From the NCBI GenBank assembly GCA_913058245.1, contig CAJXQJ010000006.1:124001-188000 (forward strand): a stretch of DNA of 64,000 nt, read 5' to 3'. Each line of letters opens with the position of its first letter. Position 1 is the stretch's first letter. Source of the DNA: an uncultured Colwellia sp. (lineage in GTDB: Bacteria; Pseudomonadota; Gammaproteobacteria; Enterobacterales; Alteromonadaceae). The notes below the pieces were generated by a model, which had not been told where the DNA came from, searched no databases, and worked only from the letters and a program-made list of their open reading frames with translations. A program made the translations under genes and the position numbers. This document shows, one piece after another, positions 57,122 to 61,993 of this stretch.

Positions 57122-57693
57122 AAATAAGGTGAACTCCTTTACTTCGCTACCATAGGCACTTTGAATGTGGGCACCCATTAGTTGAGTGGCACGTTCTAAT
57201 TTGTTTAACATCCCATTGATTGCAGCGTGTTCAGTATTCACTTGACTAACTTGCTGTTTAGAGTGCACCCAAGATTCACGTTCTGAATTCCATTTAACAT
57301 GATAAAGCCCCGGAAACTCTCCACTGGTACCATCACCCTCATTAACCACATCAACAGTTTCAACATTATCTAGACTAATTATTTTAGCCTTATCAACATT
57401 TTCCCCGCCTTCTTTTTTAGCGCCATTATTACTGGTTTCTGTATCATCTGATTTGCTAAAACCTCCAGCTGAAACACTACCTGAACCTTCAATTAGACGG
57501 AACTATAAACTTTACAATGACTACCTCCACGCGTTTCAGTACACTCAGCATACCCACTTGGGTCAACCCCGGCCAATGGATTGTTGCGAATATAACTATA
57601 TGGATTAACACCTTGCGTGTCTTCAAAATTCATCATCAGCGGGTCAACACTCATGAAACGACCCAGGTTATAATCATACACCCGCCCGTTCAT
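57122..57693 (-). pseudogene. Orphan Rhs tip 1, frameshifted and truncated by the IS
   Basis: The first 50 codons from the ATG at 57693 are the conserved Rhs core end ([19 protein letters not shown], then [20 protein letters not shown]). The frame stops at TAA near 57493, but the neighbouring frame continues ([19 protein letters not shown]) through KIISLDNVETVDVV into PGLYHVKWNSERESWVHSK and ends in the IS right end at 57121. So it is one gene with a single frameshift and a lost C-terminus. The upstream Rhs repeats are absent. The toxin class is not recognisable. Confidence 0.78.
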
Positions 57694-57872: not shown

Positions 57873-59294
57873 TTAGTTTGCGCTTTTCCACTGAATAAAC
57901 ATTTTCTCAGTGATCCCTAACCCAATAATTGAGCCTTCATGCAGTTGCGCAAGATCGCTGAGTGTCATACTGATAAACTTATCTTCTGATGGAATATTAT
58001 TATCTATACAGAATTGTTCAAGATATTGAGTAGCCGCGACCTCATCAAGTTTTTGGCGAATAATATAACCCATCGCAATTTTTCTACTGCTTCGGTGCTG
58101 TATACGGTAAGTATCAATTTCACCCAATGATTCAGTTACGGCATCGTACTGCTCACAAGAACGTAAATAGGCCCATTCAAAAAGCTCAAGCGCAGGCTCA
58201 ACTTGATTCGTCTCATAGAAATACAGCAAGGACTTAAAGTAATCTTCTTGTGGTACATCAATAAAACTCAGTGGACACAAGTTATGTTGAATAAAAGGAA
58301 TATTACAAGACAGTCGAGCCGTACGCTTGTTTACATCTTCAAAGGCTTGTAAGTACGACAGGTGCAGTAATAAAAAGAAGCTCTTTTCAAATGGATTTTC
58401 AATTTTGTCCGCTTTACGCAGGATAAGTGATAAATATTCTTCTAATTGGTGAGGGTTGCTCAATGGTGTATAGGCTGACTGGCTAATACCCACTTCAACT
58501 TCTCTAATCTTCCCGCAAGCGTTTGGGTTCGCTAGCAAGTCTTGTGATAATAATGCATGAATATTTCTGATTGTAATTGGAATAAGTACAATTTCTACTG
58601 CACTTTCAATTAAGAACTCAATCGCTTCCTTGTGATTCATGATCATCACAGTTTCTTTGTGAACCTTACCTTCGGCAGTTAAGCCTTGCTCTATCAGCTT
58701 TTGCGTATCAAGCTTTGAATAGGTATTTCCTTCTAATCGGCTTGAGTTATAAGACAGATCGATTAACAGTCGTTGACTAATTTTTTTAGCATATGTACCT
58801 GCGACTAATTGCTCATTAAACCGCTTACCAGCTTCATACAATCGAATTTTCACTGTATCAGGCACGTACTGAGTTTGATTTGGAATATAGTTATTGACTA
58901 ACGAAAATTGATAACTCGATCTTTTTCTAGCATAAGAAGGTGTATCAAAATAGCCTAATAAGGACATCACATCACTCGAAAAAATAGGATGCTTGTCATT
59001 ATTTTCGCTTTTTGTCCTTACATTTTGCCCAGAAGTGTCCTCACCCGGCACCTTAGAGACACTTTCTGGTACATTTTTGTCCTTATCAACATAGTACTTA
59101 GTATGGCTTTTCTCCCCACCAGATAACAGTAACCCTTCTTCAACCATCGACCATATACGTCTTTGCAAGGTTTTCTTGTTAATAGAGAGAGGAAGTGTTT
59201 TCTCTATTTCGCCTAGACTCATAGGCTCACCTATTTCAGCAATATGGGCTAAAATTGATGACTTTTCTTGTTCAAGAAGTGCTTTTTTACTCAT
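57873..59294 (-). CDS. Winged-helix/Fic family protein with degenerate catalytic motif
   Basis: This 473-residue protein starts with a winged HTH (about residues 10-68; KKTLQRRIWSMVEEGLLLSGG), then a polar linker and a Fic fold at about 175-385. A class II-type inhibitory motif SSRLEG (S/T-x3-E-G) lies at about 184-189. The catalytic loop at 316-324 reads QAFEDVNKR, so the usual HxFx(D/E)GN(G/K)R has Gln for His and Val for Gly. AMPylation activity is therefore doubtful. A DNA-binding regulator or an altered enzyme is likelier. The upstream repeat array suggests it controls its own gene. Confidence 0.85.
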   Translation of the reverse strand: MSKKALLEQEKSSILAHIAEIGEPMSLGEIEKTLPLSINKKTLQRRIWSMVEEGLLLSGGEKSHTKYYVDKDKNVPESVSKVPGEDTSGQNVRTKSENNDKHPIFSSDVMSLLGYFDTPSYARKRSSYQFSLVNNYIPNQTQYVPDTVKIRLYEAGKRFNEQLVAGTYAKKISQRLLIDLSYNSSRLEGNTYSKLDTQKLIEQGLTAEGKVHKETVMIMNHKEAIEFLIESAVEIVLIPITIRNIHALLSQDLLANPNACGKIREVEVGISQSAYTPLSNPHQLEEYLSLILRKADKIENPFEKSFFLLLHLSYLQAFEDVNKRTARLSCNIPFIQHNLCPLSFIDVPQEDYFKSLLYFYETNQVEPALELFEWAYLRSCEQYDAVTESLGEIDTYRIQHRSSRKIAMGYIIRQKLDEVAATQYLEQFCIDNNIPSEDKFISMTLSDLAQLHEGSIIGLGITEKMFIQWKSAN

Positions 59295-59463
59295 AACTTA
59301 AGGACAAAATTAATAAAATTGTCCTTATAATACGCCTTTAAAGGACAAAAAACAAATCTTTAAGGACAAAACCAGTGACCTAAAAGACATTTTCATACAC
59401 ATTTTGTCCTTACAAGGTGGAAAACAGATAAATTAAGGACAGTTTTATATTTTTCTGTCCTTA
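59011..59463. repeat. Array of nine TAAGGACA-type motifs (candidate operators)
   Basis: Copies of TAAGGACAAA or its complement occur at 59011, 59076, 59299, 59318, 59340, 59361, 59403, 59434 and 59454 (10 bp each, core AAGGACA in all). Seven lie in 165 bp upstream of the Fic gene and two inside its coding sequence. Pairs 59299/59318 and 59434/59454 face each other as inverted repeats; the latter has 10-bp perfect arms. Spacings are irregular, which argues against simple iterons. Binding by the gene's own winged helix is the obvious hypothesis. Confidence 0.85.
59326..59360 (-). promoter_or_regulatory. Predicted promoter of the Fic gene
   Basis: On the minus strand TTGTTT and TATTAT are separated by 17 bp, about 35 bp before the Fic ATG. 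One repeat copy fills the spacer and another begins directly after the -10, so a protein bound there would block RNA polymerase. Confidence 0.5.
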
Positions 59464-59599: not shown

Positions 59600-60160
59600 T
59601 CCTCACTCATCTTCTTCACAGCAATTAATCAAACATGGGGAATGGATTTAACCACCGTGAATATTAATGGCAGACAGCAATTGATATTAGGCATTATTGA
59701 CCATGGCTCTCGTGCTTTACTGTGTTTACAAGAAATGAAGACTAAGCATTCTCTAGTAATTATCAGAGAATTGGTTCAAGCAATAAAACTATACGGTTTT
59801 CCTAAACAAATCAGATCGGATAATGAGCGTTGTTTTACATCAAAACTCATCATCTTATCGCTTAAATTACTGTTAATTAAACATCAAACAACAGACGTTG
59901 CTCGCCCATGGAAAAATGGTCGTATTGAGCGCTGTTTTGGTAGTTTTAAACAAAAGTGGCGACTGGCTAATTTGAGTAGCACACTATATCTTCAAACTGA
60001 ACTTGGCCATTATCAAACTTGGTACAACTCAATCAGACCACATAGCAACCTTGATGAACGAACTCCTGCTGAGGTTTATCAAAATACGGTCCCAAAAGGT
60101 AACCCTATTCGAGCAAACGCGTGGAATGGTATTTTAACGGGATATTACTTTCCTGATTAA
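59600..60160 (+). pseudogene. Truncated DDE (rve) transposase, IS3-type orfB
   Basis: The open frame begins without a start near 59600 and reads into the integrase core: NQTWGMDLTTV (first Asp), IRSDNERCFTS (second Asp), WKNGRIERCFGSFK (Glu). The C-terminus (PHSNLDERTPAEVYQN...GILTGYYFPD) is complete. The N-terminal 80-120 residues are missing, and upstream frames have stops. The ATG at 59642 gives a 172-residue product but is internal to the family. It is a different element from the IS3 remnant at 56.6 kb. Confidence 0.82.
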
Positions 60161-61012: not shown

Positions 61013-61993
61013 TCACTTCTTTGCTACGCCCTGCAACATTATTGGTGGTTCAGAATTATACCACCTATGTAAATAGTTATTTAAATTTCGAATTGAAGGA
61101 GGGTTGGATGGCATTATAGGAGATTTCATAGGGTATCCTACTTTATTTGCGCAAAATATCATTGCTCCGCAAAAGACACCGTACATATGTTTATCAAACT
61201 CTTTTCGTTTTGTTGCTGTAAGTCCTTTGTAACCATCAGAAAACCCTTGAAGAAAATTACCAAGTCTCCGTGCAAAAAGGTTATTTGACTTAGCCAACCT
61301 CAAAGTTGCAAGAGATACTATGGTCGGTATAGATTCGCCAACTGCACCCAATAGCATGTGCGTGAACGGATGATCCATTAATGATTTATCACCGCCAGCA
61401 CTAGTCCAATCATCATAGCCCTGGCCTGAGTTATGCACGCCTCGCATAGCGCCCCAAGCACCGTCAGGTCCACCAACATAAATACTGGTTTGTCTCCAAT
61501 TATATACATTACCATCGCTATCTGTTCCAGAAACAGATCGTCCTTCTGAAGGCGTTGTTGGAGAGGACTTTGAAATTTCTGCTTGGGAGCCAATATCATA
61601 ACTAGCAGAAGCCCCAACACCTGCCTTAAAGTTGCCACCCGCTACAATAGCTGACTCAGCTTTACCATTAGAGTAATTCACAGAATTAGATGTAAAGCTA
61701 CCATTATTCATTACAGTAGTAGAAGTAACATTAGTTACTTCACCAGTAGCATCATCTGTCACAGTACTGGTTGTCTTTGTACCTGTCTTCTTTTTAATAC
61801 GTGAGCCTGTTACATACTCTTTGATGTCCTTCGTTTCTTCTTCAATTGCATAGCCTGTGGGATCAGTTCCTGCTAAAGGGTTATTCATAATATAGCTATA
61901 AGGGTTCATGCCTTGACTGTTACCCACATCTTGAATGAGAGGGTCAACACTCAAGAAACGTCCAAGGTTATAATCGTACACCCGCCCGTTCAT
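61013..61993 (-). CDS. Orphan Rhs tip 2 with C-terminal domain of unknown type
   Basis: The frame of 326 residues starts with the Rhs core end ([39 protein letters not shown], about residues 1-50). A Ser/Thr/Gly-rich linker follows at about 55-160. The variable C-terminus (about 165-326: NWRQTSIYVGGPDGAWGAMRG, HPFTHMLLGAVGESIPTIVSLATLRLA, GVFCGAMIFCANKVGYP) has a hydrophobic patch and two close cysteines. The long YD-repeat shell is absent, so it is an orphan tip module. The start codon sits in an 18-bp palindrome with no ribosome binding site. Confidence 0.75.
   Translation of the reverse strand: MNGRVYDYNLGRFLSVDPLIQDVGNSQGMNPYSYIMNNPLAGTDPTGYAIEEETKDIKEYVTGSRIKKKTGTKTTSTVTDDATGEVTNVTSTTVMNNGSFTSNSVNYSNGKAESAIVAGGNFKAGVGASASYDIGSQAEISKSSPTTPSEGRSVSGTDSDGNVYNWRQTSIYVGGPDGAWGAMRGVHNSGQGYDDWTSAGGDKSLMDHPFTHMLLGAVGESIPTIVSLATLRLAKSNNLFARRLGNFLQGFSDGYKGLTATKRKEFDKHMYGVFCGAMIFCANKVGYPMKSPIMPSNPPSIRNLNNYLHRWYNSEPPIMLQGVAKK

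What the first reader, a model, noticed from the sequence alone, without database searches (positions are those of the whole stretch)
59011..59463. Nine-copy TAAGGACA array wrapped around the promoter of a wHTH-Fic gene
Seven copies lie in a 165-bp non-coding stretch and two continue into the gene. One copy fills the predicted -35/-10 spacer and another follows the -10. Two pairs form inverted repeats. The product has an N-terminal winged helix. The parsimonious reading is autorepression by the Fic protein through a multi-site operator that extends into its own coding region. I know no described Fic regulator with this site.
Basis: partly seen in the sequence, partly recalled or inferred. Interest (0 to 1): 0.72.

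Follow-up and report, generated by a model that had tools for sequence, protein, structure and literature searches.

The report
Self-targeting operator array of Fic gene
A sporadic bacterial Fic-family gene carries around and inside itself a helically phased row of short DNA sites, most likely read by its own DNA-binding domain to switch the gene off; many relatives keep such a row but with their own version of the site.

Summary
The array is real: 9 exact TAAGGACA in the window (1.7 expected), all at 58959-59463. The gene (57873-59294, minus) encodes an N-terminal winged helix, a disordered linker and a Fic domain with Gln in place of the catalytic His. Relatives carry arrays around their own start, often with a clade-specific sequence: 44 of 79 loci at p<=0.01 against 1 of 79 control stretches. 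In 28 of 34 non-redundant loci one site lies inside the 17-bp spacer of a TTGNNN-TANNNT promoter, and sites are phased at about two helical turns. In some clades further copies sit in linker-coding DNA beyond synonymous expectation. Of 473 protein columns, wing residue 65 best predicts the base before GGACA, with two independent co-changes on a Fic-only tree. Best reading: autorepression by the gene's own winged helix, through promoter occlusion plus intragenic operators. Autorepressing HTH-Fic proteins are known (CccR); this family, its intragenic sites and its diversified addresses did not appear in the paper searches made. Binding and repression are not shown experimentally.

The parts
57873..59294 (-). 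Solitary winged-helix/Fic gene, 473 aa
   Evidence: ORF; Pfam Fic E 3.2e-10; AlphaFold2 model mean pLDDT 87
59070..59294 (-). Codons 1-75: winged helix (helices 3-21, 27-33, recognition helix 40-52, wing strands 57-59 and 66-68)
   Evidence: Model; of 39 N-terminal segments 15 match HTH_12 and 14 match HTH_20 at E<=0.1, the window's own best being HTH_20 at 0.0029, under the curated cut-off; profile match to solved wHTH proteins, best TtgV E 7.2e-4
59100..59102 (-). Codon 65 (Thr), wing residue that co-varies with the base before GGACA
   Evidence: Best of 473 columns, Fisher 3.8e-7; tree
58977..59087 (-). Codons 70-106: inter-domain linker (residues 77-99 disordered in the model) that hosts most intragenic sites
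   Evidence: pLDDT under 50 at residues 77-99; sites concentrate at coding nt 180-360
58725..58745 (-). Inhibitory-helix motif SSRLEGN (class II Fic)
   Evidence: Alignment
58302..58574 (-). Fic domain (Pfam PF02661, residues 241-331)
58314..58349 (-). Fic active-site motif QAFEDVNKRTAR, Gln where the catalytic His is expected
   Evidence: Gln in 16 of 16 distinct full-length profile-found members, own gene included
59350..59355 (-). Predicted -35 TTGTTT
   Evidence: not called by the strict scan
59327..59332 (-). Predicted -10 TATTAT, 17-bp spacer
   Evidence: not called by the strict scan
59456..59463 (-). TAAGGACA site, -169 from the start codon
59434..59441 (+). TAAGGACA site, -147
59405..59412 (-). 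TAAGGACA site, -118
59361..59368 (+). TAAGGACA site, -74, just upstream of -35
59340..59347 (+). AAAGGACA site, -53, inside the -35/-10 spacer
59320..59327 (-). TAAGGACA site, -33, overlapping the last base of -10
59299..59306 (+). TAAGGACA site, -12, where a ribosome-binding site would lie
59078..59085 (-). Intragenic TAAGGACA, coding nt 209 (encodes DKDK)
59036..59043 (-). Intragenic near-copy TGAGGACA, coding nt 251 (encodes GEDT)
59013..59020 (-). Intragenic TAAGGACA, coding nt 274 (encodes VRTK)
58994..59001 (-). Intragenic weak copy TAATGACA, coding nt 293 (an exact TAAGGACA lies at the same place in L001)
58959..58966 (+). Intragenic TAAGGACA, antisense, coding nt 328 (encodes MSLL)

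Best explanation
The gene encodes a one-component autorepressor. Its N-terminal winged helix, held in a dimer or higher oligomer by the Fic part, binds a row of ~8-bp half-sites (core GGACA here) placed about two helical turns apart around its own promoter. One site lies inside the -35/-10 spacer, one overlaps the -10 edge and one covers the ribosome-binding region, so occupancy excludes RNA polymerase. A second cluster is written into the codons of the disordered linker; its first copy is 221 bp (about 21 helical turns) from the -12 site, and it strengthens repression by looping or by blocking elongation. The Fic domain has the class II inhibitory motif but Gln in place of the catalytic His; it most likely serves as an oligomerising module that senses a nucleotide or partner and releases the repressor, rather than as a standard AMP transferase. 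Shown here: the array, its recurrence in relatives, promoter position, phasing, excess over synonymous expectation in some clades, and co-variation with the wing. Inferred: binding, repression, looping, oligomerisation, the sensing role.
For: Own-motif array around the start in 44 of 79 homologue loci at p<=0.01, control 1 of 79 (near-identical pairs not removed). Later sets, tested upstream only with mononucleotide shuffles: 8 of 10 distinct profile-found relatives and 9 of 12 viral-contig or plasmid relatives at p<=0.01. A site inside the 17-bp spacer of TTGNNN-17-TANNNT in 28 of 34 non-redundant loci, 27 of them at offset 2 or 3 (mononucleotide shuffles mean 0.7, max 4). Distances between neighbouring sites of 70 bp or less: 71 of 130 at 18-23 bp, resultant 0.66 at 10.5 bp. 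Linker-coding copies 33 against 3.85 under synonymous shuffling in 53 loci. Intragenic sites in 34 loci: 99 of 167 in the three 60-nt bins from nt 180; those in nt 180-345 fall in five frame/orientation classes. Wing residue 65 is the best of 473 columns for predicting the base before GGACA. No other comparable cluster in the held part of the own genome. No constant partner gene found.
Against: No binding, footprint or expression data. In one search, 16 of 47 loci at >=46% identity and 19 of 32 below 46% do not reach p<=0.01. L084, the same sequence as L022, gives p 0.455 when only -250..+50 is tested. The sigma-70 scan did not call the promoter, the promoter pattern was framed after looking at the sequences, and six of 34 loci lack it (L011, L012, L015, L026, L036, L046). 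With correction for descent there are only two independent residue/base co-changes, too few for a significant sign test. L018 breaks the residue-65 rule, though its motif is weak. Intragenic copies of the upstream word were found in 16 of 53 loci and in 37 there were none, so that part is not general. The nt-328 site may partly reflect conserved V/M-S-Y/L residues. The own genome is 66.9% complete, so unseen targets are possible. The sites could in principle serve activation.
Confidence: 0.82

Rival explanations
1. The protein binds its own array but as an autoactivator or dual regulator rather than a plain repressor.
For: Sites also lie upstream of -35 (-74 and beyond), where activators bind; L016 and L079 have long upstream arrays.
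Against: A site inside the spacer in 28 of 34 loci and sites over the start region are the usual layout of a repressor (established knowledge).
Confidence: 0.08
2. The array is read by some other host or plasmid protein (a nucleoid or partition factor, or a replication initiator as for iterons), and the Fic gene is merely its neighbour.
For: 20-22-bp spacing resembles iteron spacing (recalled); some relatives sit on plasmids.
Against: The array goes with the Fic gene across many genomes with no constant neighbour found, its sequence changes with the Fic protein's own wing residue, and in some clades copies lie in the gene itself.
Confidence: 0.05
3. The inverted pair at -33/-12 acts as an RNA hairpin over the ribosome-binding region.
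For: Predicted hairpin of 9 pairs, z -1.79, 11 of 200 shuffles as good; in L003 both arms carry the same change.
Against: Weak z-score; sites upstream of the predicted promoter are not transcribed from it; several clades lack the pair.
Confidence: 0.03
4. The intragenic copies are a by-product of coding constraint or of descent; only the upstream array works.
For: The nt-328 copy coincides with conserved residues; 37 of 53 loci have no linker copy of their upstream word.
Against: 33 copies against 3.85 with the protein sequence held fixed (24 against about 2.96 when L005, L007, L082, L083, L085 and L086 are left out, summed by hand); five frame/orientation classes and many peptides.
Confidence: 0.15

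Closest known systems
CccR of Yersinia pseudotuberculosis (PMC9755527, passages read)
   Same: Fic protein with an HTH domain that represses its own promoter; class II inhibitory motif
   Different: CccR has its HTH at the C-terminus, a catalytic His (His192), two 10-bp boxes AGATAATCAT separated by 26 bp, no intragenic sites described in the passages read, and is a T6SS effector
SoFic (3eqx; PMC12249575, start of abstract and passages read)
   Same: Class II Fic protein reported to work as a single protein; PADLOC SoFic model matches here at E 8.2e-8
   Different: Intact catalytic-pocket His (H194/H198); winged helix at the C-terminus of the S. oneidensis structure (PMC2686095 passage); AS1 antitoxin encoded downstream in E. 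coli H397
CbFic2 of Coxiella burnetii (PMC10628234, passages read)
   Same: Fic enzyme with a winged helix that binds DNA
   Different: Discussed in the passages as possibly sequence-nonspecific; catalytically active; no own-promoter sites described in the passages read
Phd-Doc toxin-antitoxin operon (recalled; PMC13034048 seen only as a search listing)
   Same: Fic-fold protein and autoregulation through operator sites
   Different: DNA binding is by a separate antitoxin; no partner gene was found here
PADLOC candidate PDC-S04
   Same: Best defence-library match, E 3.2e-13 over the Fic part
   Different: The three PDC-S04 models cover only residues 168-373; the winged helix is not in the match

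Membership tests
Fic/Fido fold proteins | Fic domain fold and sequence | tested here: met
   Pfam PF02661 41.1 bits, cut-off 24; Foldseek to FICD E 1.8e-8
Fic/Fido fold proteins | Catalytic motif HPFx(D/E)GN(G/K)R with His | tested here: not met
   QAFEDVNKRTAR in the window; Gln in 16 of 16 distinct full-length profile-found members; one locus, L026, has His
Class II Fic (N-terminal inhibitory helix) | (S/T)xxxE(G/N) motif before the Fic core | tested here: met
   SSRLEGN; S184, S185, L187, E188, G189, N190 invariant in 44 rows
CccR-type HTH-Fic autorepressors | HTH fused to Fic in one chain | tested here: met
   Winged helix in the model and by profile
CccR-type HTH-Fic autorepressors | C-terminal HTH | tested here: not met
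   The winged helix found is N-terminal, residues 3-68
CccR-type HTH-Fic autorepressors | Binds and represses own promoter | not testable with these tools
   Inferred from site placement and co-variation
SoFic anti-phage proteins | Catalytic His and C-terminal winged helix | tested here: not met
Type II toxin-antitoxin (Phd-Doc) | Adjacent antitoxin gene | tested here: not met
   No constant neighbour: the most widespread family of ORFs of 80 aa or more was in 6 loci; among ORFs of 20-110 aa in 600-bp flanks the widest was shared by 4 of 41 loci and is tRNA-like

The most novel reading that the evidence does not exclude
A widespread family of one-gene regulators, often on mobile DNA, in which a Fic domain that has lost its catalytic His is the sensor or trigger, and each lineage has evolved a private DNA address (winged helix plus operator array, in some clades partly stored inside its own disordered linker codons). 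Private addresses would let co-resident copies ignore each other while a resident copy silences an incoming copy of the same type, like phage immunity groups; entry into a naive cell or a phage or plasmid signal would release a burst of the protein.
Probability: 0.25. Interest if true: 0.82.

Novelty: new variant of a known kind. Interest (0 to 1): 0.64.

Why it matters
It gives Fic proteins with Gln instead of His, which are hard to place as enzymes, a testable role as self-targeting transcription factors. It offers a natural series of paired winged-helix sequences and operators for reading out DNA specificity (wing residue 65 against the base before GGACA). It is also a case in which a disordered linker appears to be shaped by operator DNA under it, so protein and regulatory DNA share the same bases. 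If the private-address reading is right, it would describe a new kind of exclusion system on mobile elements.

Tried and rejected
Iteron or partition-site reading: rejected as main reading because the array goes with the gene and its wing residue, and no constant neighbour was found. RNA hairpin: weak. Toxin-antitoxin pair: no partner found, also among short ORFs; the most shared short downstream ORF (L018, L021, L028, L031) looked like spurious translation of a tRNA gene (recalled pattern), and ARAGORN finds tRNA-Arg genes there in L018, L021 and L031, none in L028, whose stretch holds masked bases. Regulon elsewhere: in the lists I see no other cluster of three or more TAAGGACA within 500 bp in G000, G198 or G257; searches show a few isolated AGGACA pairs elsewhere in G000 (C6:65695, C11:63061, C1:223276, C12:63950, C12:80275). 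The lists for G071 and G144 were cut at 100 of 140 and 100 of 169 places, for G144 before its Fic contig, so these two are incomplete. G000 is 66.9% complete. Conservation of Gln in the loci is biased because QAFEDVNK was one of the search peptides; I relied on profile-found relatives instead. Gln at this place is not unique to the family: low-scoring other Fic proteins L094-L096, L105, L106, L130, L133 and L135 have it too. Defence-island context: neighbours include helicase, restriction, methylase, Argonaute-type and Cas1-type matches (only the 25 widest of 110 and 191 families are shown), but without a control I draw no enrichment claim. Strict sigma-70 scan: none found. The test of residue 65 against the motif with correction for descent has two independent pairs and cannot reach significance. 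Paper searches: the listings and abstract starts that I saw describe neither this family nor intragenic operators in a Fic gene; only open-licence PMC papers are searchable.

Full report
What is there. The window holds nine exact TAAGGACA, all between 58959 and 59463, where 1.73 are expected in the whole 64 kb; the held genome (66.9% complete) has 35 in 2.96 Mb. Near-copies AAAGGACA (59340), TGAGGACA (59036) and TAATGACA (58994) lie among them. They surround the start of a minus-strand gene, 57873-59294, 473 aa. Its C-terminal part is a Fic domain (Pfam E 3.2e-10; Foldseek best matches FICD, then 3cuc and SoFic). An AlphaFold2 model from 44 family members (mean pLDDT 87) shows an N-terminal three-helix winged helix (recognition helix 40-52, wing 57-68), a disordered stretch (77-99), then the Fic part. 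Of 39 N-terminal segments, 15 match HTH_12 and 14 match HTH_20 at E<=0.1. The inhibitory motif SSRLEGN is nearly invariant, and the active-site motif is QAFEDVNKRTAR, Gln where the catalytic His stands in ordinary Fic enzymes. Among members found by profile rather than by a peptide containing this Gln, 16 of 16 distinct full-length ones (own gene included, score 500 or more) have Gln; HPFxDGNGR appears only at scores of 87 or less, in other Fic families, some of which have Gln too. One locus, L026, has His.

Relatives carry arrays. Eighty loci were fetched from genome contigs and more from whole-genome searches. In most homologues of 46% identity or more, AGGACA-type copies gather upstream of the start and between coding nt ~205 and ~345, while L011, L012, L015, L016 and L042 have none. 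Counting words without a preset motif showed why: clades have their own motif, such as TAAGGACA, AATGGACA, ATTGGACA, AAAGGACA, ATAGGACA, TAGGGACA, TAAGGTCA, TTGGGACA, TTGTGACA, TTGCGCCA and TCGCGCCA. Against 200 dinucleotide shuffles each, 44 of 79 loci reach p<=0.01 in -200..+360, against 1 of 79 for a stretch of the same length in the Fic-coding part; by identity, 31 of 47 (>=46%) and 13 of 32 (<46%). These loci include near-identical pairs. Later sets, tested on upstream sequence with mononucleotide shuffles, agree: 8 of 10 distinct profile-found loci and 9 of 12 viral-contig or plasmid loci at p<=0.01. L120, L121, L142, L143 and L145 do not reach that level, nor do L084 (0.455) and L086 (0.020).

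Placement. In 28 of 34 non-redundant loci there is TTGNNN-17-TANNNT with a site in the spacer, in 27 at offset 2 or 3 from the -35 hexamer; mononucleotide shuffles give a mean of 0.7 and a maximum of 4. L011, L012, L015, L026, L036 and L046 lack it. In the window this is TTGTTT (59355-59350), TTTGTCCTTTAAAGGCG, TATTAT (59332-59327); the next site overlaps the -10 edge and another lies at -12. I framed this pattern after looking at the sequences, and the strict consensus scanner finds no promoter. Of 130 distances of 70 bp or less between neighbouring sites, 71 are 18-23 bp, 17 are 29-31 and 22 are 39-44; the resultant length at a 10.5-bp period is 0.66. Related loci are not independent. A Bdellovibrio-type relative (L077) instead has two palindromes, TATTGGGACA-N5-TGTCCCAATA.

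Inside the gene. With the motif taken from upstream sequence only, the linker-coding stretch (nt 180-345) holds 33 copies in 53 loci, against 3.85 when synonymous codons are shuffled within each gene with the protein kept; nt 360 to the end hold 8. The copies fall in 16 of the 53 loci. Leaving out six near-duplicates gives 24 against about 2.96 (summed by hand). In 34 loci, 99 of 167 coding-region sites fall in the three 60-nt bins from nt 180 and at most 15 in any other bin; the 91 in nt 180-345 occupy five frame/orientation classes and many peptides. In the window the copies encode DKDK, GEDT, VRTK, NNDK and (antisense) MSLL. In these clades the linker thus looks shaped by DNA-level selection. 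Clades such as L011/L012/L016, L032 and L077 lack the intragenic cluster.

Who reads the sites. Counting NGGACA by its first base in 36 non-redundant loci: wing Arg at position 65 with T-majority in 8, Arg with A/G-majority in 1 (L018, weak motif), other residues with A/G-majority in 26, one tie with no sites (Moritella), and none with another residue and T-majority. Scanning all 473 columns over 35 of these loci, residue 65 is the best predictor (p 3.8e-7) and the next is 1.7e-5. On a tree built from the Fic part only, the Arg/T state appears in two separate clades; L017, with Thr and an A motif, is placed next to L018 in one of them on a weakly supported branch (96/67). Parsimony needs three changes of the residue and two of the motif; there are two independent pairs on starred branches, so the corrected sign test cannot be significant. 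This is the pattern expected if the gene's own winged helix reads the array.

Scope. In the held part of the own genome and in two other carriers I see no comparable second cluster, only isolated pairs; two further carriers had truncated lists. No neighbour gene is constant, large or small. Relatives lie on plasmids of Aromatoleum, Thiothrix, Allorhizobium and Undibacterium beside integrase, recombinase, transfer or HipA genes, on eight viral contigs and, in four of 38 loci scanned, within about 1.1 kb of a tRNA-Arg gene. The gene is sporadic: 44 of 394 genomes of the order have any match, other Fic families included. PADLOC's closest models are candidate PDC-S04 (3.2e-13) and SoFic (8.2e-8), both over the Fic part only.

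Mechanism. Best supported: autorepression by promoter occlusion through cooperative binding of phased half-sites, with an intragenic cluster whose first copy lies 221 bp (about 21 turns) from the -12 site, for looping or elongation block. The Fic part probably oligomerises and senses a ligand; the missing His argues against ordinary AMP transfer. Steps beyond site conservation are inference.

Relation to known systems. CccR (PMC9755527, passages) is a Fic protein with a C-terminal HTH that represses its own promoter through AGATAATCAT boxes 26 bp apart and has a catalytic His. SoFic (PMC12249575, start of abstract and passages) is a class II anti-phage Fic with its His. CbFic2 (PMC10628234, passages) binds DNA, perhaps without sequence preference. 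The Fido survey (PMC2686095, passages) noted HTH-Fic fusions and suggested that they may regulate fic expression. In what I read, none of these combines an N-terminal winged helix, Gln, phased arrays and intragenic operators. I therefore call it a new variant of a known kind.

Noticed in passing
window 59642-60160 (+): 172-aa ORF resembling the integrase-core part of an insertion-sequence transposase (recalled likeness, not searched) just upstream of the array; perhaps a relic of insertion beside the gene.
   Followed up: no
window 57493-57693 and 61013-61993 (-): Two ORFs starting [13 protein letters not shown], an RHS-repeat core-like motif (recalled, not searched), flank the Fic gene and the transposase-like ORF, as if the segment had inserted between RHS tips.
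   Followed up: no
L018 4404-4480, L021 4434-4510, L031 4491-4567, L020 5394-5470: tRNA-Arg genes lie within about 1.1 kb downstream of the Fic gene in four relatives, suggesting an island end.
   Followed up: partly
L003 upstream, -33 and -12 sites: Both arms of the inverted pair carry the same G-to-A change (TAAAGACA / TGTCTTTA), as if symmetry is selected.
   Followed up: no
G000 whole genome: TAAGGACA is rarer (35) than the same word read backwards (93) in the own genome; the same direction holds in G198 (66 and 202) and G257 (62 and 129).
   Followed up: no
L016 -236 to -68; L079 -241 to -47: Long regular arrays upstream: nine sites in alternating orientation every 20/22 bp in L016, and twelve in one orientation, mostly 20 bp apart, in L079.
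   Followed up: partly
window 59294-59327: By eye, no Shine-Dalgarno-like sequence before the start codon in the window and its nearest relatives; an operator copy lies where it would be.
   Followed up: no
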